A stretch of DNA of 32,951 nt from Gemmatimonadaceae bacterium (GTDB lineage: Bacteria > Gemmatimonadota > Gemmatimonadetes > Gemmatimonadales > Gemmatimonadaceae), in the NCBI GenBank assembly GCA_016742275.1, contig JACVCD010000017.1:1-32951 (forward strand), written 5' to 3'. A model generated the notes under the pieces. It was not told the DNA's origin, ran no database searches, and was given only the letters and a program-made list of their open reading frames with translations. A program made the position numbers and the translations under genes. Position 1 is the stretch's first letter. Each line of letters starts with the position of its first letter. Of this stretch, positions 2 through 10,868 are shown piece by piece.

Positions 2-829
2 GAGTATCCCATGGTCATCAATTCCAACATCGGCGCGGCGGATCACGAAGCCGCGCATATGTGGTGGCCCATGGTGGTGGGCAACAACGAGACTTGGTAC
101 GGCTGGATGGATGAAGGATTCAATCAGTACATGAACATCCTGTCCAAAGCCGATGCGGATGGAAAGTCGCCGGTGCTCGATAGTCTCGGGCAGAGCTACG
201 GTGCTACCAGCGGAAACGAAGCCGAGGCACCGATGATGTGGAACGCCAACTATGGCGGACCGGGATTCTATGGCTTCACGACGTACACCAAGACTCCGCT
301 CATGCTGTCGATGCTCGGCGCCATGGTGGGTGACAGCGCTGTACAGCGTGCGCATCGCGAGTGGGCCAGCGCCTGGCTGTTCAAACATCCGTCGCCGTGG
401 GATTGGATGTTCTTCATGAACAAGGCGCTGGGCCGCAATCTCGATTGGTTCTGGTACAGCTGGCTCTTCACCACCGATGCGGTGAATGGCCGTCTGGCTA
501 GCGTGAAGCGTCAGGGCCTCAACACGGCCGTGGTGGTAGCGCAGGATGGCAACATGCCGGCACCCATCGTGCTCGACGTGACCTTTGCCAAGACAGGGCC
601 GGCTATCCGCCCCATGCGCAACGCCGTCATGCTCAACGACTCAACGGCGCGGGTTACCGTGCCTGTGGACGTGTGGTTTGACGGACGTCGTGAACACACG
701 GTGAATCTGGTGTTCGGCGGGCGTGCCATTGTGTCGGTGCAGCTGGATCCGCAGGCGCGATTCCCGGATCGTGATCCCAAGGACAATCTCTGGACGGCGA
801 AGGCAGCGGAGAAGCCGGCAACGCGCTGA
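2..829 (+). CDS. M1-family zinc metallopeptidase, C-terminal part (5' end outside window)
   Basis: This is the C-terminal 275 residues of a gluzincin aminopeptidase-like protein. The reading frame is already open at base 2 and reads EYPMV, which matches the G-x-M/x-E-Y-P-M substrate motif of M1 peptidases, so the ATG at base 11 is internal and the gene starts upstream of the window. The zinc motif follows: HEAAH, then 18 residues, then the third ligand Glu in WMDEGFNQY. The remainder is the helical C-terminal domain and a short beta domain ending near SVQLDPQARFPD. M1 enzymes remove N-terminal residues from peptides; in this phylum many are secreted, but the signal-peptide region is not visible. 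The last 94 bases of coding sequence and 17 bases beyond the stop (733-843) recur at 3360-3482 after the KAP gene. The family assignment is firm; the substrate is unknown. Confidence 0.9.
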   Translation, partial: EYPMVINSNIGAADHEAAHMWWPMVVGNNETWYGWMDEGFNQYMNILSKADADGKSPVLDSLGQSYGATSGNEAEAPMMWNANYGGPGFYGFTTYTKTPLMLSMLGAMVGDSAVQRAHREWASAWLFKHPSPWDWMFFMNKALGRNLDWFWYSWLFTTDAVNGRLASVKRQGLNTAVVVAQDGNMPAPIVLDVTFAKTGPAIRPMRNAVMLNDSTARVTVPVDVWFDGRREHTVNLVFGGRAIVSVQLDPQARFPDRDPKDNLWTAKAAEKPATR

Positions 830-843
830 GCAATCGTTCGAGT
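733..843 (+). repeat. Left copy of a 111/123-bp direct repeat (3' end of the peptidase gene)
   Basis: These bases encode the last 31 residues of the M1 peptidase, its stop codon and 14 bases beyond. They match 3360-3482 except for one substitution after the stop (gcaatcg here, gcactcg there) and a 12-base unit, gcagcggagaag, that is single here and doubled there. Similarity stops abruptly at both ends, so the two copies behave like the flanks of an inserted segment. Confidence 0.93.
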
Positions 844-872
844 GTGCAAAGTTTCGACGGCCCTCGAACGAT
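833..872 (+). other. 10-bp perfect inverted repeat after the peptidase stop
   Basis: Arms ATCGTTCGAG (833-842) and CTCGAACGAT (863-872) are perfectly complementary across a 20-base spacer. The left arm lies inside the direct repeat and the right arm lies in the inserted DNA, so this structure exists only at the left junction. There is no T-tract, so it is not a classical terminator; a recombinase core or a protein site is possible. Confidence 0.5.
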
Positions 873-902
873 CAAGGCAATAGTGAATTCGAAGAAGAAT
901 CG

Positions 903-3323
903 ATGAAAGAAAACTCGAAGAGTCGGCTGGCGGCTCGTTCTTTAGATCGTCCTCTGCTATCGGACGAGCCGCTGTCGAGCCCCAAAGGCGATCGGTTTGG
1001 TATAGTCGGCTTTGCGCGGAGGGTAGCGCAGCTAGCCCTAAATGTGCCAGGAACATCAACAATGACAATTGGTGTCACGGCCCCTTGGGGAAGCGGCAAG
1101 TCTACAGTGCTGAACTATATCGAGGAGATCTTGCTTGGAGAGCTTTTACTCCCGGAGCATCGGCCAGTGTCTCCAGTCACAGGCAAGAGATCACCCCAAC
1201 CTATCGTCATTAGGTTCTCTCCATGGCTGTACACCGACGTAAACGCCCTTACCCGTGCGTTTTTTGATACGATTTCCAGAGGGCTTGGGCCACACGTTGG
1301 TTCGATATCCTCGCGCGCGTCATTCACTGAGGCGATGGGTGTAGTTGCGCAAGCGCTACAACCAGCAGCGAAGGCAGTAGGAGTATCCATGCTGCCAGGA
1401 GATGACGGCACCTTAGCTGTCGGTCTCCTCCGCCTAATGGCGCGCGCTATCGGTGCTGGTTCAAAGCGAACTGCGCTGGCCGAGCAAGACGTGTTGCTCG
1501 CGAAGGAAAAAATCACACGAGCTCTAGTTGGCTTGTCGAATTCTTCCGCGCCCAGAAGAGTTGTCGTACTTGTTGATGATCTCGATCGCTTAAGGCAGGA
1601 TGAGTTGCTGGGAATGCTTAAACTGCTTCGCCTCGCAGCAGGATTGCCGAATATCACTTATGTCGTTGCTCTTGACGAGCATCGCGTTTCGAGCGCACTG
1701 AACCCGGAGTCGCCAGCTGATGGAATGGCGTACTTGGAGAAATTCTTGCAGCTCTCAGTTCCTCTTCCCCTGCCAGAAGAGAGCGCGCATGTGGATTGGG
1801 TTTTGCGCGAAGCACGCGCCGTCCTCTCTGAAGTTGGCGTCGACGTAAGTGTGTTGGCGGTTGAGCGGCGTAGTGAGGAATATTTCGGGCGAGATCACTT
1901 GCTAGCCATTCTGCAAAACGCAGTGAAGAGTCACAGGGATGCCGTAAGAGTTGTCAATCTGCTAAGAGTGGCTACGGTCGGTGACCATACCGCAGTAGAC
2001 TTCCATGCCAAGGACCTGCTGATCCTATGTGTGGTGAAGGCCGCAATGCCGAATCTTTACCGCTTTATTGTAAGCAATAAGCGATTGCTTGTTCATCGTT
2101 CCCATCGACTGTTTCCAGAACCAAGTTCGTCGACGGCGAAGAAACAACGATTAGACGAGATTGGGATAGCACTCACAAGAGCTGGAATCGCTCTCCCTGA
2201 CGAAGGATGGAGAGAAGCTTTGGATGTTACAAGCCAGCCAGGGCTATCCGGCCCGGACCAGCAAGAGTTGTGGCTTGAGTCTCTGATTTCACTTTTCCCA
2301 AATCTTACGCAGACAGCATTTTCAGCGAGCGCTATGCGCAAGCTGCACTCGAGTTGTAGGATTGAGTCCTTTCATCACTTCGATTCATATTTTCGATTCG
2401 AACGGAGCACGGGAGTTGCTTCGCGAGCAGACGTGGAGCGAGCTCTTCGCGCAGTGACTGAAAATGCGTATGACGGGCTTGAACTCGAGTGGTTTGTGGG
2501 CCAGCTAGCCGGACTGCACGTTGATGCACAATACTACCTACTGGATGTGCTGCTGGATGACCTGGCTCATGCAAATGTTTCGGAGCTTCAATGTTCGTTC
2601 CGTTCTCTCCTCGCTATTTTTTTTAGCTATCGTTGGCAAGTGGTCTCTCGCGATGACGCCAACATAAGCTTGTTTGAAGCTCTTGAGCGCGTTGTGTGGT
2701 CAGTCTTGACTCGACTTCGGCATAGGATCTCATTCGATAGCTGGGCTCTATGCATCGCGCAGCTGGTTGGACTCGTCGCTGACGCTGATGGTGTTGAGCT
2801 TGTGGACCATTTGGTGTCTTCGTCGCAGAGCGATATTAGGCTATCTCCGCTAGAGGCAGGCTTGGTGGCTTCTCTTGTAGTCTTTCAAGCGGAGACAGTC
2901 GCTCGCGAAACTCTTGCTAGACTTGATTCCGGAATGAGTGCTTCGCGAACTATGGTTGGCTCTCTTTGGCGCTTCTATCGCCTGTCGCAGGCCGCAGGTG
3001 TTGCCACCGGCAAAGAAGAAGAAGCCTTGCCTATTGTTCACTCAATCGACCAGATGCTGCGTTCAAATCCCAAGCTTGTTGGTGTAGTCTTATCTCTTGC
3101 TGCGCAGTGGAGTGGCAACAACTACGAAGCTCCGAGCTTTATCGAAACGAATCGCAGCAGAATCGACGCGTCTTTGTCGAAATTCGTCTCGAGGTCGGTT
3201 CTGGATGATGCGCTCAGCCTTTACGCAAGGCAGACAACCTCAGATGTTCAGTGGGCGACCTTGGTGGACGATTACTTGGATTTGCTATCGACCGAACCTG
3301 AGGGTGCGGATGATTCTTTGTGA
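903..3323 (+). CDS. KAP-family P-loop NTPase
   Basis: An 806-residue soluble-looking ATPase of the KAP family (named for Kidins220/ARMS and the F-plasmid phage-exclusion protein PifA). The Walker A region is APWGSGKST at residues 60-68, of the KAP form W-G-S-G-K-S. The IRFSPWLY strand follows at about 103-110, Walker B is VVVLVDDLDRL at 220-230, then YVVALDEHRV (253-262) and the typical YLEKFLQLSVPLP segment (277-289). Many bacterial KAP proteins carry membrane helices between Walker A and B; I see none convincing here. Residues from about 320 to 806 form a long, mostly helical region I cannot assign. The frame stays open upstream into the peptidase gene, but composition and the A/G-rich gaagaagaa before the ATG at 903 support this start. 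KAP NTPases are often in phage-defence or mobile contexts; the AT-rich composition and flanking repeats fit acquisition by transfer. A defence role is inference. Confidence 0.88.
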   Translation: MKENSKSRLAARSLDRPLLSDEPLSSPKGDRFGIVGFARRVAQLALNVPGTSTMTIGVTAPWGSGKSTVLNYIEEILLGELLLPEHRPVSPVTGKRSPQPIVIRFSPWLYTDVNALTRAFFDTISRGLGPHVGSISSRASFTEAMGVVAQALQPAAKAVGVSMLPGDDGTLAVGLLRLMARAIGAGSKRTALAEQDVLLAKEKITRALVGLSNSSAPRRVVVLVDDLDRLRQDELLGMLKLLRLAAGLPNITYVVALDEHRVSSALNPESPADGMAYLEKFLQLSVPLPLPEESAHVDWVLREARAVLSEVGVDVSVLAVERRSEEYFGRDHLLAILQNAVKSHRDAVRVVNLLRVATVGDHTAVDFHAKDLLILCVVKAAMPNLYRFIVSNKRLLVHRSHRLFPEPSSSTAKKQRLDEIGIALTRAGIALPDEGWREALDVTSQPGLSGPDQQELWLESLISLFPNLTQTAFSASAMRKLHSSCRIESFHHFDSYFRFERSTGVASRADVERALRAVTENAYDGLELEWFVGQLAGLHVDAQYYLLDVLLDDLAHANVSELQCSFRSLLAIFFSYRWQVVSRDDANISLFEALERVVWSVLTRLRHRISFDSWALCIAQLVGLVADADGVELVDHLVSSSQSDIRLSPLEAGLVASLVVFQAETVARETLARLDSGMSASRTMVGSLWRFYRLSQAAGVATGKEEEALPIVHSIDQMLRSNPKLVGVVLSLAAQWSGNNYEAPSFIETNRSRIDASLSKFVSRSVLDDALSLYARQTTSDVQWATLVDDYLDLLSTEPEGADDSL

Positions 3324-3324
3324 A

Positions 3325-3468
3325 ATGCAGGTGCTTGTCGGTAGCGTACCCGTTTCGAGGTCGGTGCAGCTGGATCCGCAGGCGCGATTCCCGGATCGTG
3401 ATCCCAAGGACAATCTCTGGACGGCGAAGGCAGCGGAGAAGGCAGCGGAGAAGCCGGCAACGCGCTGA
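3325..3468 (+). pseudogene. Detached duplicate of the M1 peptidase C-terminus
   Basis: An ATG two bases after the KAP stop opens a 47-codon frame whose last 36 residues repeat the peptidase tail (SVQLDPQARFPDRDPKDNLW and onward), with one extra AAEK unit. It lacks every catalytic element and has no good ribosome-binding site, so it is best read as the displaced native 3' end of the peptidase gene rather than a working gene. The short stretch before the repeat (3325-3359) has only weak resemblance to the corresponding peptidase sequence. Confidence 0.75.
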
Positions 3469-3482
3469 GCACTCGTTCGAGT
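3360..3482 (+). repeat. Right copy of the direct repeat, with a 12-bp internal duplication
   Basis: This is the 123-bp counterpart of 733-843. It carries two tandem copies of gcagcggagaag (3430-3441 and 3442-3453), adding AAEK to the encoded tail. It is followed within 50 bases by a strong terminator, which suggests that this copy is the original chromosomal end of the peptidase gene. Confidence 0.93.
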
Positions 3483-3531
3483 TCCAGTCGGAACTCACGC
3501 GAGAATTCGATGAATGAGGGGCGCGATGAGG

Positions 3532-3563
3532 GGCGCGGGTTCATGGAACCCGCGCCTCTTTTT
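3532..3563 (+). terminator. Rho-independent terminator
   Basis: An 11-bp perfect G+C-rich stem (3532-3542 with 3546-3556, 3-base loop) is followed by ct and five T residues. It would end plus-strand transcription from the peptidase/KAP side. It overlaps the stop codon of the convergent DUF4249 gene at 3541-3543. Confidence 0.88.
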
Positions 3564-4422
3564 CTGCCACCGCACTGGCAATGAAGTAGCCAAGCGCACG
3601 CACTTCGGGTCGTGTCAGATTGGCGACGTTTCCGCGCACATTCGCGGCTGGCACCGCAAATGGTGATCCGTCACCATTACCCTGCTGATTGAGTGCCACG
3701 TAGTAGCGCCACACCGATTCGGAGATCGAGTATTGGCGCATCTTCACTGTCTGTCCGGATTGCACCTTGGTTTCGTCAAAGGGCTGGAAGTTCCGGGCGA
3801 GACCACCGGAATACATCTCGTCGCTGGCCACGATGCGAATGGTGTACGGAATTTGCGTGTAGCGCACCATGGTGCCGTCTATCCACTGATCCCACATGTA
3901 GTAGTTGGTCTGCGTCATGGGATCACGCATGTTGATCGTGGCGCGTAAACCGTCAGTCGCCGCATCCTTTCCTTCCCGACTCATGAAGTACAGTGAGTCG
4001 ATCGGTGGCACGGCGTCGAGTCGTTCAGTCGACTCGTAGCGATCGCCCTTCCAGTCGATGCGAAGTGTGTAGGTGCGTCCAACTTCGGCCACGAGATCCT
4101 GCGTTTCGTATTGACCGGGTGCCCGCGTTGACTCTACGAAACTCACTGCGCGTCCACGGTCATCCGTGACAGTGACCGTGGCACCACGCGCCGGTGGTGT
4201 CGGCACGTTGGAGAAGTAGGCCGCCGTGGTGGTGAGCCGGAATGACTGCCGTCCGCTTGGCGCACCCTGAATGGCTTCGAGGCGCGCCTCCACCACGAGA
4301 CGCTCCGGTCCTTCGTCGACATCGATGCTCACCACACGTTCGCACGCGCCCTGTGTCAATGCCGCGAGCGCCACAAGCAACGGTCGAGTCTTTCGCGCGA
4401 CTTTCGAATTCATCAGCGACAT
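3541..4422 (-). CDS. DUF4249-type outer-membrane lipoprotein, partner of the TonB receptor
   Basis: A 293-residue exported protein, last gene of a four-gene operon. The N-terminus (MSLMNSKVARK, then a hydrophobic stretch ending ALTQGAC) looks like a lipoprotein signal, although Gln at -3 of the Cys is an unusual lipobox residue. After it come beta-rich regions with VTVTDDRGR and YTLRIDWKGDRYES, as in DUF4249 proteins that accompany STN-type TonB receptors in Bacteroidetes. I chose the ATG at 4422 because a GAGG overlaps the upstream stop at a good distance and the receptor stop lies only 7 bases away, implying translational coupling. ATG 4413 is an alternative. The family role is thought to be a surface-exposed accessory to its receptor; the ligand is unknown. 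The DUF assignment rests on sequence feel and operon position. Confidence 0.72.
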   Translation of the reverse strand: MSLMNSKVARKTRPLLVALAALTQGACERVVSIDVDEGPERLVVEARLEAIQGAPSGRQSFRLTTTAAYFSNVPTPPARGATVTVTDDRGRAVSFVESTRAPGQYETQDLVAEVGRTYTLRIDWKGDRYESTERLDAVPPIDSLYFMSREGKDAATDGLRATINMRDPMTQTNYYMWDQWIDGTMVRYTQIPYTIRIVASDEMYSGGLARNFQPFDETKVQSGQTVKMRQYSISESVWRYYVALNQQGNGDGSPFAVPAANVRGNVANLTRPEVRALGYFIASAVAEKEARVP

Positions 4423-4429
4423 CAGTTCC

Positions 4430-7270
4430 TCAGAAGCGAAAGACATAGTTGATGCTCGGCACAATGCCGAAAATCGATGTGCGAACCGCTTCGGTGATCA
4501 GCGGATTCTTTTCCTGCGGCCGCACGTGCATGGACTGCGCATTGAAGCGGTTGTAGGCGTTGAGCAGACCGAACTGCAATTCGCCGCGTCGCATGAGTCG
4601 CGTGGCGCTCAAATCGAGTCGATGGTACAGCGGGAGGCGCGCACCGTTGCGTGGGCCGTACTCGGCAATCACGAATCCATCGAGCTCGTAGCGCGTGTGC
4701 GGCAGCGTGATGGGAAGACCGGACGCCACGACAAACGACGAGCCAAGCGTCCACTTCGGTTTCCACTGATATACGCCGACCAGCGAAAGCGTATGGGTCT
4801 TGTCGAACGGTGAGACATACCAGCGACCTTCGTTCACACCACCGCCCTGTGTCGCTCCGGCACGCGGCGGTACCTGGAATCGCTGCTCGGCGCGGGCCAA
4901 TGTGTAGCTGGCCCATCCCGTCAGGCGACCGGTGGTGCGCCGCGCAAAGAGTTCGAGGCCAGTCGCACGTCCTTGACCTTGCACGAGCAGTGTTTCGAGT
5001 CGTGGATTGAGTACCACATCTGCACCATCGATGTAGTCCACCACATTCTTGGAGCGCTTGCCGTAGATCTCGGCCGTAAACTCGTAAGACGCCGTGCGTC
5101 CACTGTACCCAAGAGCGATCTGGTCGGCGCGCTGCGGTTGAATCCAGTCTCCAACCGGTTCCCACACATCGAGCGGTGTGGGTGAATTCGTGTTGGACAC
5201 GAGTTGCAGAAATTGCTGCGTGCGCGCGTAGCTGGCCTTGAGGCTGTGATTGGGCGTCAGCGTGAAACGCATGGACGCGCGCGGCTCCCACCCGCCGTAT
5301 CGCGCAAACGATGTCTTCTTGGACAGCGACACACTGTCCAGCAGTACACCAGGTTCGTACCGGCCAAGCACCGGATTGTAGACCACCGGCGCATCATTGC
5401 GATACACGTAGCGTGTGCCGGGCCCCTGGCGATCAAATGCGGAATAACGCACGCCGTACTTGGCCGCAATACGCGACCCGAGTTCGACTTCGTGCTCGAT
5501 ATACGCCGCAGTGGCCAGACCATGGCGTGGCTCGATGATGCGGGGACGCAATAGTAGCGTGTCCCCCTTGGGGGTCATCGCGCCGGGACTGAACTCATTT
5601 GACGTCAGCTCGGCGCCGAACGTGAGCGATTGGCGGTTGGACAACTGCCACGCTTCATCGATCTTGATACCAGTGCTCTTGATACCGGCCACCCAGCGCG
5701 CCGAGTCCCGTGGCTCGAGTCGAAACTGCAGGCGATAGTCGTAGTCGCTCTGGGTGGCCGTCACCTTCGAGAACAACGCACCAAACGCCTGATTCCACCG
5801 GAGTGTGGTGGAGGTGTTGCCCCAGCCCACACCCGCGCCTTCAACGGGCTGCTTGAAGTGATCGCGACCGGCATAGGTGGAGAACATCAATGCACCAGAC
5901 TTGCCAAGTCGCCAATTGATCTTGGCATTCACGTCGTAGAAGTACGCATCCGTCTCCTGTAGTGCCGTGTCGCTCGCGAACGCGAGAAAGAGATCGGCGT
6001 ACGAACGGCGCCCTGCCACGAGATAGCTGCCGCGCTTGCCAGGCAGCGGGCCTTCGACCAGCACGCGACTGGAAAGCAGACCGATCGACGCCGAGCCACC
6101 GAACTGTGTTGCATTGCCTTCGCGCTGCCGCACGTCCACCACGCTGGATAGACGTCCGCCGAACTTGGCGGGGATGGCACCCTTGTAGAGCGTGACATCA
6201 TCCACGGCATCGGCATTGAATGTGCTGATGAAGCCGAGAATGTGTGACGGGTTGTAGATGGTGGCTTCGTCGAGCAGAATGAGATTCTGGTCCACGGCGC
6301 CGCCGCGCACACTGAACGCCGTCGATGCATCACTGGTGGTGGCAACACCAGGCAGGAGTGTGAGACTGCGTAGCGGATCCACTTCGCCGAGCAGCGGGGG
6401 AGCTTGGCGCACCGTGCGCAGGTCGAGTCGATTGACGCTCATGTCCGGGAGCGTCGGATCGAGATCTGCTCGCTCGGCCTTGGTGGCTTCGACCTTCACA
6501 GCGGAGAGCACCACACTGCGAGGACGCAAAATGAGATCGCGTGTGGTATTGCTGCTGATGGTCACCACTGTGTCGAGCGGAGAGAACCCGAGTGAGCGCA
6601 CCTGCAGGCGATACGTGCCCGCTGCGAGCATGAGCAGGTAGAAACCTTCCTCATTGCTTTCGCGACGCGCACTCGATGTTTCTGCATCTTCTGATGCTCC
6701 GGCCTCCAGCACCGCGTGACGCACGACTTCGAGACTGCTGGCGTTTCTCACGTAGCCAGACACACGAAACAACTGTGTGGTGCTGTCGGCGCGTGGTCTC
6801 CGGGGTTCCGTGGTACGCGGCACCACAATGACCTGTCCAGCCGGGCCGACCATTGCACGTAGTGCGCTGCCATCGAGCGCACGCAGCAACGCATCGCGAG
6901 CAGTGAATCGACCGGCTGTCGGCGTGATCGGCGTTTCGAGTTCCGGGCGTGCCGGATCTGCGGCGAAACTCAGTCGCGCCTGACGTGCGATGTCGTCGAG
7001 AACCTTGCCACGTGGTTGACGTGTGCTGTTCAGCGTAACGATGGTGGCGAGTGCACCTTTGGGTGGCGAAGCGCTGTCGAGCGGAACAAAGCCGGCAGGT
7101 ACAGTGCTGCTACGCTGCGCATGCAACACGGTTGCGGGAATGGTCAGGGCGCTCGCGAGCAGTGCACCGAACAGCAGCAGCGCACGTCGTCGCAGCGGCG
7201 CGCACCATCGCGCAGCCAGCGGGGCGCCCGCGGCATTCAGCCGACGGGCGTGGAATAGCGAAACACGCAT
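4430..7270 (-). CDS. TonB-dependent outer-membrane receptor with STN signalling domain
   Basis: A 946-residue receptor. Order of parts: basic N-terminus and signal sequence (about 29-52, ending LHAQ); STN domain (about 85-152), which in FecA-type transducers passes ligand status to a FecR protein; carboxypeptidase-regulatory-like beta domain (about 168-250); plug (about 290-400, with FSVRGGAVDQNLILLDEA and the YKGAIPAKFGGRLSSVVDV strand); then a 22-strand-type barrel ending in the aromatic signature NYVFRF. It would import a ligand across the outer membrane using TonB-ExbBD energy, none of which is encoded nearby. It starts 3 bases after the FecR stop and is followed by the DUF4249 lipoprotein, so receptor, transducer and sigma factor form one regulated unit. 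The ligand cannot be told from the sequence; iron chelate, sugar polymer and peptide are all possible. Confidence 0.9.
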   Translation of the reverse strand: MRVSLFHARRLNAAGAPLAARWCAPLRRRALLLFGALLASALTIPATVLHAQRSSTVPAGFVPLDSASPPKGALATIVTLNSTRQPRGKVLDDIARQARLSFAADPARPELETPITPTAGRFTARDALLRALDGSALRAMVGPAGQVIVVPRTTEPRRPRADSTTQLFRVSGYVRNASSLEVVRHAVLEAGASEDAETSSARRESNEEGFYLLMLAAGTYRLQVRSLGFSPLDTVVTISSNTTRDLILRPRSVVLSAVKVEATKAERADLDPTLPDMSVNRLDLRTVRQAPPLLGEVDPLRSLTLLPGVATTSDASTAFSVRGGAVDQNLILLDEATIYNPSHILGFISTFNADAVDDVTLYKGAIPAKFGGRLSSVVDVRQREGNATQFGGSASIGLLSSRVLVEGPLPGKRGSYLVAGRRSYADLFLAFASDTALQETDAYFYDVNAKINWRLGKSGALMFSTYAGRDHFKQPVEGAGVGWGNTSTTLRWNQAFGALFSKVTATQSDYDYRLQFRLEPRDSARWVAGIKSTGIKIDEAWQLSNRQSLTFGAELTSNEFSPGAMTPKGDTLLLRPRIIEPRHGLATAAYIEHEVELGSRIAAKYGVRYSAFDRQGPGTRYVYRNDAPVVYNPVLGRYEPGVLLDSVSLSKKTSFARYGGWEPRASMRFTLTPNHSLKASYARTQQFLQLVSNTNSPTPLDVWEPVGDWIQPQRADQIALGYSGRTASYEFTAEIYGKRSKNVVDYIDGADVVLNPRLETLLVQGQGRATGLELFARRTTGRLTGWASYTLARAEQRFQVPPRAGATQGGGVNEGRWYVSPFDKTHTLSLVGVYQWKPKWTLGSSFVVASGLPITLPHTRYELDGFVIAEYGPRNGARLPLYHRLDLSATRLMRRGELQFGLLNAYNRFNAQSMHVRPQEKNPLITEAVRTSIFGIVPSINYVFRF

Positions 7271-7273
7271 CTA

Positions 7274-8383
7274 TCAGGGAATCAGTGTGATTTGCGTTCC
7301 GCGCTGCTCGATCTCCACGCCAAGGACGGCGGTAAGCATGTCGAGAAGCTGCGGGAGTGGTTGTGTCTCGAAGCGCGCCGAAAGGCGTCGGTCGAGCAAA
7401 GCGGCGGGGGCCGTGATATTCACACCATACCAACGACCGATCACGGGAAGCGCTTCCCTGAGCGGTGTACCATCGAAGTGCAGTTCACCTTCGAGCCAAC
7501 CGAGTGCCAGTGCGGCATCACGCGTGACGGTCACATGTCCAGCACCGTCCAGCCGTCCACGATCACCGGCTTGCAGTCGACGTTGCTGCATGACTGCCGT
7601 TGTGCGAGCTGCGGCGGAGTCAGCGAGTGCCACCTCGCCCTCTTCCACCGCTACGTCAACACCGGCCAGTTCGGGCCAGCCACGCACCACGAATCGAGTG
7701 CCGATGTCTTCGGCAATGGCATGTCGGATGTGCACACGAAACGGTACGCGTTCGTCGTGCACGACATCGAAGTACGCTTCGCCGTCCACACGCACATCGC
7801 GTGAGCCCTGTGCAAAGCGGCGAGGCCAGCTGGCGCGGCTTCCCGCGGCCAGCGTCAAGCGACTTCCATCTGGCAACGTCACAGCAACGCGCTGGCCGAG
7901 CGGCGCCGTCAACGTCTGCATGGCAGTACGGGAGAACTGCCAATAGCTGCCAACGGCAATCACGATTGCCGCCGCCGCTGCCCACTGCCACCGTCGCCAT
8001 GTCGTTTGGGCGACTCGTGCATTGGCTCTTGCACCGATGTCGTGCGATGCGGCAGAAGCCGCTGCTGGAGTTGCCACAGCCGCGTTCGAGTTCGGCAACT
8101 CGAGGCGCTGCTGCAACTGAGTCCACGCCATATGCGCATGCAACGCACCAAACCGGGCGTTGGCATCACCCGACTGCTGTGCCAGCACACCCGGCAACGC
8201 CAATAGCAGCGCCGCGTTGGCCGGCGACGCATCCTTCCATACCGATACCGTGCGAATGTCAGCCGGAGTCGCCGTTCCCGAGAGCACGGCGTCGATGGCA
8301 CGCACGAGCTCCGTGCCCGCATCATCGACTGATGCGGCCGCTGGCGTGACAGCGCGGGAGTTGGGAGGCGTCGGGGTCTTCAT
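7274..8383 (-). CDS. FecR-family transmembrane anti-sigma factor
   Basis: A 369-residue inner-membrane regulator. The cytoplasmic part (about 1-130) contains the segment FGALHAHMAWTQLQQRL expected to bind the sigma factor. One membrane helix lies at about 132-149 (WQWAAAAAIVIAVGSYWQF). The periplasmic FecR domain follows (about 155-260, with GQRVAVTLPDGSRLTLAAGS and VDGEAYFDVVHD), and the C-terminal region (about 295-369, GELHFDGTPLREALPVIGRW) resembles DUF4974/STN-like folds that contact the receptor's STN domain. GGAG lies 8 bases before the ATG. The gene sits between the ECF sigma gene and the STN-type receptor, the standard arrangement for cell-surface signalling. The ligand sensed is set by the receptor and is not known. 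Confidence 0.92.
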   Translation of the reverse strand: MKTPTPPNSRAVTPAAASVDDAGTELVRAIDAVLSGTATPADIRTVSVWKDASPANAALLLALPGVLAQQSGDANARFGALHAHMAWTQLQQRLELPNSNAAVATPAAASAASHDIGARANARVAQTTWRRWQWAAAAAIVIAVGSYWQFSRTAMQTLTAPLGQRVAVTLPDGSRLTLAAGSRASWPRRFAQGSRDVRVDGEAYFDVVHDERVPFRVHIRHAIAEDIGTRFVVRGWPELAGVDVAVEEGEVALADSAAARTTAVMQQRRLQAGDRGRLDGAGHVTVTRDAALALGWLEGELHFDGTPLREALPVIGRWYGVNITAPAALLDRRLSARFETQPLPQLLDMLTAVLGVEIEQRGTQITLIP

Positions 8384-8455
8384 GGCATGGTCTCCATTGA
8401 CACCACACGTGAAAAGCGGATTTCCCCCCTCCCCGTGAGCGCCATGGTACGAGCG

Positions 8456-8998
8456 CTATTCGTTTGAGGGATTTCCCAAGGCATCGCGCAGCAGTCGGAT
8501 GCCGCGTGCCAGCTGCTTCTCTACCGCTTTGACACCAATGCCCAGGACCTGGGCCACTTCAGCGTAGCTAAGCCCTTCCTGCCAACGGAGCTGCATGGCG
8601 GTACGGCAGCGTTCGGGCAGTCCGTTCATGGCCGATGTCAGCGCCTCGTGACGCTCGGCCTGTTCGAGCAATTGGTCAGCGCGCGCCGGTGGCTCGTGCA
8701 GTGCACGTACATCATCGAGCGACTCGTCGTCCTCCCATGCACGCTCGACCTGGTCCCGGCGGCGCACATTGAGTGCGCGATTACGTGCCGTTGCATATAG
8801 ATAGGCTCGTACGCTGCCGGAGAGCGACAGAGACTCCCGGCGCTGCCACAATTCAAGGAAGAGATCCTGCACCAGTTCCTGGGCGCGGGCGTCATCACCC
8901 ACGATCCGCTCCACGAAGGCACACAGGGGCGCGTGCACATCGAAGAACAACTTGCGGAATGCCTCCACATTGCCCGCGCGCAATTGCGCGACGAGCAT
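8456..8998 (-). CDS. ECF-type RNA polymerase sigma-70 factor
   Basis: A 180-residue extracytoplasmic-function sigma factor. Region 2 runs from VEAFRKLFFDVHAPL through LVQDLFLELWQRRESL to AYLYATARNRALNVRRRD (about 12-90), and region 4 is LPERCRTAMQLRW followed by the helix-turn-helix GLSYAEVAQVLGIGVKAVEK (about 125-170). The frame can be extended to 9163, but that extension lacks family similarity and runs into the control region of the divergent chemoreceptor. The ATG at 8998, preceded by an AGGA-like sequence, gives the usual length of this class. It is expected to be held by the FecR protein downstream and to drive this operon or related receptors. The 265 bases between this start and the chemoreceptor start show no promoter I would defend. 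Confidence 0.88.
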   Translation of the reverse strand: MLVAQLRAGNVEAFRKLFFDVHAPLCAFVERIVGDDARAQELVQDLFLELWQRRESLSLSGSVRAYLYATARNRALNVRRRDQVERAWEDDESLDDVRALHEPPARADQLLEQAERHEALTSAMNGLPERCRTAMQLRWQEGLSYAEVAQVLGIGVKAVEKQLARGIRLLRDALGNPSNE

Positions 8999-9263
8999 GG
9001 CGTCCTGGAACTCAGTCGGTTGATCTGCAGGTGAATTGTGGGGCGGCACAGCACCGTCGCTGGCGGTCGCAGTCAAAGCACGGTGGGCGCTGAGCTGCGC
9101 TCCACATGGCCTCCGCACTACGGTAGACGTTTTCCCACGTTTCGCCACTGGCCGTGGGACCACCTCAAGTCTGCGAAGGGACCAACCGATACCACCTCAC
9201 GAAGCACTGGGTTCCGTATGGACCTTTTGGTGCTTTCGGCAGGGGCGAGGGCGTCCCGCCGGT

Positions 9264-10868
9264 ATGAGACCTCCCGCCTACCAGTCTGTGTCATTCCTTG
9301 AAATCCGGACACTGCGCGCCCGCCTGCGCGCCGTGGCAGTCCTTGGCGCCACGGGAATTCTGGCTGTTGCTGTGTCCGCAGTGCTGGCAATGCGAGGTGC
9401 GACGCCCGCGACCACGAATGTTCTTGCGGTGTGGCGTGTGCCCGGCGCGACATCCGTGCTCGTGGTGACGGCGCTCTTTCTGGTGGCTGTGCTGGGCTTT
9501 GCCTTTATAGTTGCCAAGCAACTCGGCGAACGACTCTCACGAGTGGCACAGCATGTCGAGCTGGTACAGCGGCAGGGTGTGGCACAGGTAGCGGCGGCGC
9601 TTGAAGCTCTGTCGCGTGGTGAGCAGGTGACATTGAGCACCCCAGCCTATCGCGCCCTGCGTGACGACATTCCGGATGAACTGGGTGCCGTGTCCGTTGC
9701 CGTGGACCGCATGGCCGATGAATGCAAGTCATCATTGGAAGCCTGCAGCAAGGCGCAGGATGCCATTGGTACCGCAGTGCAGGAGATTGCCCGCGTGGCA
9801 GCGCAGGCACGTCAGGGTGACCTGACGGTGCAGGCGCGCATTGGCGCGCTGCAGGGGCAGTACGCGGAAGTACTGACTGGTGTGGATGGCGTGGTGCAGG
9901 CCGTGCGTGAACCACTTAATGAAGCGTGCCGCGCACTCGAGGCGGTTGCCGAGCGCAATCTCGAAACGCGCATGACGGGAACCTATGCGGGCGATTTCGC
10001 GCGCATGCAGGGAGCGTTCAACACAGCAGTGCAGGAACTCGCCCAGACCATCGGTCAGGTGCGTGCGTCGGCTGTGCAGGTAGATCATGCCGCCGGTCAG
10101 TTGGCGAGTGGCAGTACGCAGTTGGCCAACGGTGCATCGCAGCAGGCTGCCAGCGCCGAAGAAATCGGTACCGCGTTGACGGAACTCACCACGCGCGCCT
10201 CGGTGGCATCGCGTGAAGCGATTGCTCTGCGTGAACGCGCCACGGAAGCTGGCGCACGCGTCGATGCCGGTAGTGCGGCCATGGATGCGCTGCGTGGCGA
10301 CATGGTGCGCATCAAGCAGTCGGCTGACGCGTCACAGCGTATTGTGCGCACCATCGATGAAATTGCATTCCAGACGAATCTACTGGCCTTGAACGCGGCG
10401 GTCGAAGCTGCGCGTGCCGGTGATGCGGGCCGCGGTTTTGCTGTCGTTGCCGATGAAGTGCGGCAGCTGGCTCTGCGCGCGGCAGAGGCGGCGCGTCAGA
10501 CGACCACTCTCATCGAGGAAGAAATCCGCAATGTCGATGCCGGTGTCGCGCGTGAGCAGCAGGTGCGTGAAGCACTGACCGCTACGCGAGTTGAAGTCAC
10601 GGCCATGCGTACATCGATCGACGATCTCGTATCGGGCGCTGCGCAACAGGTGGACGGCGTGCGTCAGGTAAGCAACGGCGTGCAGGCCATGAGCGAAGTC
10701 ACGCAGCAAGTGGCGGCCAGCAGCGAAGAGTCGGCGGCGTCAGCGGAAGAGTTGCTGGGGCAGGCGGCGCAGCTCAATACACTGGTGCAGGAGTTCCGGA
10801 CGAGAGACGCCGAGCGTAGGGGCAGTGATGGCCTTTCGCTTGATGCGCGGCGTCGGCGGGCGGCGTAG
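9264..10868 (+). CDS. Methyl-accepting chemotaxis protein without a periplasmic sensor domain
   Basis: A 534-residue chemoreceptor. Two membrane helices (about 23-43 and 64-83) are separated by only about 20 residues, so there is no ligand-binding domain outside the membrane. HAMP-like helices follow, including [19 protein letters not shown] (186-204) and a second [17 protein letters not shown] unit (232-248), suggesting stacked HAMPs. The signalling hairpin tip is canonical ([20 protein letters not shown] at 364-383, then [13 protein letters not shown]). Gln/Glu-rich flanks offer methylation sites. The C-terminus ends RRRRAA with no CheR/CheB-tethering pentapeptide. The frame extends upstream to 9036, but the ATG at 9264 places the first helix near the N-terminus as expected. 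No other chemotaxis genes are in the window. Sensing is presumably of membrane, cytoplasmic or energetic state. Confidence 0.9.

What the first reader, a model, noticed from the sequence alone, without database searches (positions are those of the whole stretch)
733..3482. A lone AT-rich KAP NTPase gene sits between two copies of the 3' end of an M1 peptidase gene
The sequence shows a 111-bp segment (peptidase tail, stop and 14 bases beyond) repeated 2,627 bases later with one substitution and one 12-bp unit gain. The enclosed DNA is much poorer in G+C and contains one gene. This mimics elements that integrate into a gene's 3' end and restore it with their own copy, yet no recombinase is present. 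A defence-type gene moving as a recombinase-free cassette with a protein-gene 3' end as its site would be a little-described mode of exchange. The right copy lies next to the native terminator, suggesting that the left tail belongs to the incoming DNA. An 8-base GAATTCGA also recurs after both copies (885-892, 3503-3510).
Basis: partly seen in the sequence, partly recalled or inferred. Interest (0 to 1): 0.75.

Follow-up and report, generated by a model that had tools for sequence, protein, structure and literature searches.

The report
KAP defence gene between duplicated gene tails
A probable anti-phage gene entered this Gemmatimonas-like genome without any visible recombinase, leaving the neighbouring peptidase gene intact but duplicating its last 111 bases, and two other genomes of the same phylum show the same kind of arrangement around the same kind of gene.

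Summary
733-843 recurs at 3360-3482 (one substitution, one extra 12-bp unit); the copies enclose one KAP NTPase gene (903-3323, PifA-like by PADLOC) at about 53% G+C against about 60%. The genome has only these two copies. Relatives lack the gene, and in most of them the peptidase is followed directly by a chemotaxis gene. Here 8.3 kb lies between: KAP is one part, an ECF/FecR/TonB/DUF4249 module the other.

Of 29 well-scoring KAP loci in the phylum, two more sit between duplicated gene ends without a recombinase: L206 (113 bp of motB's start, the functional copy recoded) and L274 (289 bp of an ABC-ATPase's start plus upstream DNA). In 2.5 Mb of other DNA I found no comparable case, though not every repeat was followed up. 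All three fit single-crossover addition of DNA carrying the cargo plus a fragment of the target gene's end; placement at gene ends may only reflect survival of the target gene. Whether the crossover was RecA-type or made by a recombinase acting in trans or since lost is unresolved. Best call: new variant of a known kind.

The parts
11..829 (+). C-terminal part of an intact M1-family peptidase gene (its front half ends contig C19)
   Evidence: PF01433; 85-92% protein identity to G006/G008
733..843 (+). left copy of the duplicated segment (peptidase 3' end, stop, 14 bases beyond)
836..876 (+). imperfect inverted repeat ATCGTTCGAG/CTCGAACGAT that begins inside the end of the left copy; not better folded than shuffles (z -1.3)
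   Evidence: sequence
903..3323 (+). KAP-family P-loop NTPase, 806 aa, PifA-like (probable anti-phage gene)
   Evidence: PF07693 E=6.2e-30; PADLOC PifA E=8.7e-53
3324..3359 (+). 36-bp spacer between KAP and the right copy; its last bases with the first of the repeat match KAP's 3' end (3185-3199) at 14 of 15
   Evidence: 2 of 200 shuffles reach 15
3360..3482 (+). right copy of the duplicated segment, with one extra 12-bp unit; 5'-truncated remnant of the peptidase gene
3529..3564 (+). hairpin followed by a T-run, terminator-like
   Evidence: inverted repeat I8; sequence; not listed by the terminator scan
3541..9163 (-). DUF4249, TonB-dependent receptor, FecR-like and ECF-sigma-like genes: second insertion between peptidase and chemotaxis gene
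   Evidence: DUF4249 and TonB by Pfam, the other two named by eye; absent from this place in relatives
9252..10868 (+). chemotaxis (methyl-accepting) gene that directly follows the peptidase in most relatives
   Evidence: named by eye from the sequence

Best explanation
The KAP gene was added next to the peptidase by one crossover between the chromosome and incoming DNA that carried KAP plus a copy of the peptidase's 3' end (a small circle, or an equivalent end-joined or homology-facilitated integration of DNA from a close relative). The product is an intact peptidase gene, then KAP, then a leftover peptidase tail; no recombinase has to travel with the gene. Placement at a gene end needs no special site, because only integrations that keep the target gene whole survive. 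Shown: the repeat, the lone cargo, its absence in relatives, no recombinase in the segment, the same topology around two other KAP genes. Inferred: the single crossover by homologous recombination, the circular or end-joined form, the route of entry (for instance transformation), and the anti-phage role.
For: 111 bp of near-perfect identity at both edges of one low-G+C gene. Occupied only here: peptidase then chemotaxis gene in most relatives, KAP in no other genome of the family. Same topology with different targets and repeat lengths in L206 and L274, and none of the three segments has a recombinase. In L274 the repeat crosses an intergenic region into the upstream gene, as an arbitrary chromosomal fragment would. 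HFIR and transformation-made duplications are known processes (PMC5361080, PMC3784515).
Against: No donor, circle or empty site of the same species was seen. In L206 the change from incoming to resident sequence falls within about 10 bp of the end of the repeat, which a site-specific crossover explains more directly. In the window and L206 the outer edge of the repeat lies within 14 bases of the gene's end, more than an arbitrary fragment requires.
Confidence: 0.5

Rival explanations
1. A site-specific mini-island: a recombinase supplied in trans, or since lost, integrates a KAP cassette at a core inside a protein gene, and the cassette's own copy of the gene end restores the gene.
For: Repeat edges near the stop (window) and start codon (L206). 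Recoded functional motB start in L206 with the apparent crossover in the last 8 bp, GTCACGGC. Tyrosine recombinases exist elsewhere in all three genomes.
Against: No recombinase in any of the three segments; three unrelated targets and repeats of 111, 113 and 289-500 bp; no other occupant or tail duplication at the peptidase end in relatives.
Confidence: 0.35
2. Two unrelated local events: a duplication of the peptidase tail followed by insertion of KAP between the copies (or the reverse), without KAP and tail arriving together.
For: Local duplications do occur here, for example the 549-bp tandem duplication in C12.
Against: Needs two events at one spot, and the same coincidence in L206 and L274. 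KAP begins close to the end of the left copy.
Confidence: 0.1
3. An assembly error joined unrelated stretches.
For: The window begins at a contig break inside the peptidase gene.
Against: The copies differ by a substitution and 12 bp, both sides are unique sequence, and two other genomes show the same topology with diverged copies.
Confidence: 0.05

Closest known systems
Homology-facilitated illegitimate recombination, as proposed for T6SS effector-immunity arrays of Vibrio cholerae (PMC5361080)
   Same: Addition of a foreign gene next to a homologous anchor, leaving old gene parts behind; no recombinase
   Different: There the old effector is displaced and its immunity gene kept; here the target gene stays whole and one end is duplicated. 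Homologous anchor and donor not identified
Integrase-less islands flanked by attachment sites (CIMEs; pseudo-SCC elements at rlmH), from own knowledge
   Same: Cargo between direct repeats at a protein gene's end, no recombinase inside
   Different: No recombinase-bearing relative at this site, no defined core, targets differ between cases
Gene-restoring elements such as e14/phage 21 in icd (own knowledge)
   Same: Element carries a copy of the target gene's end, in L206 with synonymous changes
   Different: Those encode an integrase; here the cargo is one to a few genes
PifA / KAP NTPases of plasmids and defence islands
   Same: KAP domain; PADLOC PifA match over residues 19-610 of 806
   Different: Matches in plasmids are under 30% identity; activity unknown

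Membership tests
KAP NTPase / PifA-like | KAP P-loop domain above the curated cut-off | tested here: met
   PF07693, 104.9 bits against a cut-off of 20; PADLOC PifA E=8.7e-53
KAP NTPase / PifA-like | phage exclusion activity | not testable with these tools
   needs an experiment
Qat system | QatA above NCBIfam's cut-off | tested here: not met
   39.9 bits against a cut-off of 600; KAP is alone in its segment
Integrative element with its own recombinase | recombinase gene inside the element | tested here: not met
   KAP is the only convincing ORF between the copies
Integrative element with its own recombinase | direct repeats at both ends | tested here: met
Integrase-less island (CIME-like) | same site used by a recombinase-bearing relative | tested here: inconclusive
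   no tail duplication in the relatives examined; recombinases were not searched for around every locus
Integrase-less island (CIME-like) | empty site in the same species | not testable with these tools
   one genome per species; in most other species of the genus the peptidase is followed by the chemotaxis gene without KAP
Homology-facilitated illegitimate recombination | one homologous side and one joint at microhomology | tested here: inconclusive
   15 bp with one mismatch between KAP's 3' end and the right junction, reached by 2 of 200 shuffles; donor unknown

The most novel reading that the evidence does not exclude
KAP-type defence genes in Gemmatimonadota travel as recombinase-free cassettes that carry a short copy of the end of the gene they enter, so that a single crossover inserts them and restores the gene; the same cargo class reaches different genes by carrying different ends.
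Probability: 0.25. Interest if true: 0.75.

Novelty: new variant of a known kind. Interest (0 to 1): 0.5.

Why it matters
How small defence genes move without transposases or integrases is poorly explained. A duplicated gene end is a readable scar: it marks the joint, can tell which copy is incoming (as in L206), and makes a recombinase-free route testable by comparing strains and by transformation. If the pattern holds in a wider census, it would give a simple rule for finding recently moved defence genes.

Tried and rejected
Foreign tail: the peptidase's last 63 bp fit the nearest relatives less well than its body does (differences -0.18 and -0.13), but other close pairs show a mean of -0.10 with sd 0.058, so this is not exceptional.

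Third motB case in G146: the fragment lies at a contig end and the rest of the gene at another contig end, so it is a split gene. motA-motB gaps in G156 and G072 are filled by ordinary high-G+C genes without a motB duplication.

L203 (vapC end beside a Qat locus), L270 (repeat beside, not around, KAP), L272 (repeats that look like an insertion sequence) were not counted. L284, L290, L292: repeats without a clear gene end. L287 was not examined.

Close KAP relatives: none in genome contigs or viral contigs, none in phages. tRNA and Rfam searches: nothing. The hairpin after the left copy is no better than shuffles. Ten low-G+C islands of the own genome, tested for flanking repeats by a cruder window scan, gave none; that scan also missed the KAP repeat itself, so it is no control. 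Literature queries on KAP and on recombinase-free cassettes were unhelpful.

Full report
Observation. The 111-bp segment 733-843 returns at 3360-3482 with one substitution and one extra 12-bp unit. Both copies hold the end of an M1-family peptidase gene, its stop, and 14 bases beyond. Between them lies one gene, a KAP-family NTPase of 806 aa (PF07693; PADLOC PifA E=8.7e-53), in DNA of 0.527 G+C against about 0.60. The genome holds no third copy. The peptidase gene's front half ends another contig, so the left copy belongs to an otherwise complete gene.

Surroundings. In most of the genus the peptidase is followed at once by a chemotaxis gene, the homologue of window 9252-10868; a few genomes have other neighbours. 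In the window 8.3 kb lie between: KAP, the second tail, a hairpin with a T-run, and a DUF4249/TonB/FecR-like/ECF-like module on the other strand. DUF4249 homologues occur elsewhere in the genus, but not at this place in the loci compared. The site has therefore received at least two additions. KAP has no homologue at E<=1e-30 in the other 178 genomes of the family, none in phages, and only matches under 30% identity in plasmids.

Is it a class? I searched the phylum for KAP genes and read up to 20 kb around the best of them. Of 29 well-scoring KAP places (E below 1e-20, window included), three have KAP between duplicated gene ends. L206 (G155): motA, the first 113 bp of motB cut short, KAP with an XRE-type gene and small ORFs, then complete motB; G+C 0.59 inside and 0.73 outside. 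L274 (G341): a gene U, a PD-T4-5-like ORF, the first 289 bp of an ABC-ATPase gene cut short, a 1367-aa KAP, a decayed copy of U's end, then the complete ABC-ATPase gene. I saw no recombinase in these segments; in L206 and L274 this rests on family searches of the main ORFs only.

Control. In 1.2 Mb of the own genome the other repeat pairs are a 549-bp tandem duplication, an intergenic array and a distant pair; a search for duplicated protein ends gave no other case around low-G+C DNA except the tandem duplication. In 1.33 Mb of non-KAP loci only L284 and L287 have repeats in the size range; L284 shows no clear gene end, L287 was not examined. Fifteen PD-T4-5 regions gave no comparable arrangement. 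The comparison is informal: loci were chosen for KAP, part of them after thresholds were set on the first cases.

Mechanism. All three have the form expected when a circle, or DNA behaving like one, that carries cargo plus a piece of the target's end recombines once with the chromosome: the target stays whole and a cut-off piece remains on the far side of the cargo. Placement at gene ends follows if only integrations that spare the gene survive. In L206 the two copies are different alleles. The left one agrees with the related genome G156 where they can be compared; the one now used by motB has its changes concentrated in the last 53 bp, nearly all synonymous and poorer in G+C, and the change back to resident sequence falls within about 10 bp of the end of the repeat. 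That is how gene-restoring site-specific elements look, and it is the best evidence for the rival. Against one site-specific system stand three unrelated targets, different repeat lengths, and no recombinase. The two models cannot be separated without an empty site from the same species.

Membership. The protein is a KAP NTPase; a Qat assignment fails. As a mobile element it fails the test of having its own recombinase, and no recombinase-bearing relative at the site was found, so I do not file it as an integrative element. It works like integrase-less islands or HFIR products (the latter proposed for Vibrio T6SS arrays, PMC5361080), without proof of membership in either.

Verdict. A real and probably recent acquisition of a defence-type gene with a duplicated gene end, recurring in kind at two other loci; mechanism open; interest 0.5.

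Noticed in passing
L206 11134-11182 (G155): A strong hairpin inside the insert (z -7.2); one arm contains CGATGATGGCGTTCTTCAT, identical to motB just after the apparent crossover.
   Followed up: partly
window 3541-9163: ECF/FecR/TonB/DUF4249 module inserted between peptidase and chemotaxis gene in this lineage; homologues lie elsewhere in relatives.
   Followed up: partly
G000:C12:62272-63374: 549-bp tandem duplication (99.8%) of the 3' end of a low-G+C gene, partial second copy of 170 aa.
   Followed up: partly
L270 9953-12642 (G224): 5' end of an aspartyl-protease-like gene duplicated around a RecG-C-terminal-like gene, right beside a PDC-S20-type KAP gene: possibly the same kind of event without KAP inside.
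   Followed up: partly
L203 3292-5235 (G308): 195-bp 3' end of a vapC-like gene duplicated 1.7 kb apart, next to a Qat-like locus.
   Followed up: no
L274 11290-12303 (G341): A PD-T4-5-like ORF sits between the upstream gene and the truncated ABC-ATPase start, so this site received two defence-type genes.
   Followed up: partly
window 837-919: Five TTCGA/TCGAA words in about 80 bp around KAP's start, against 0.3 per 100 bp in the window; possible operator.
   Followed up: no
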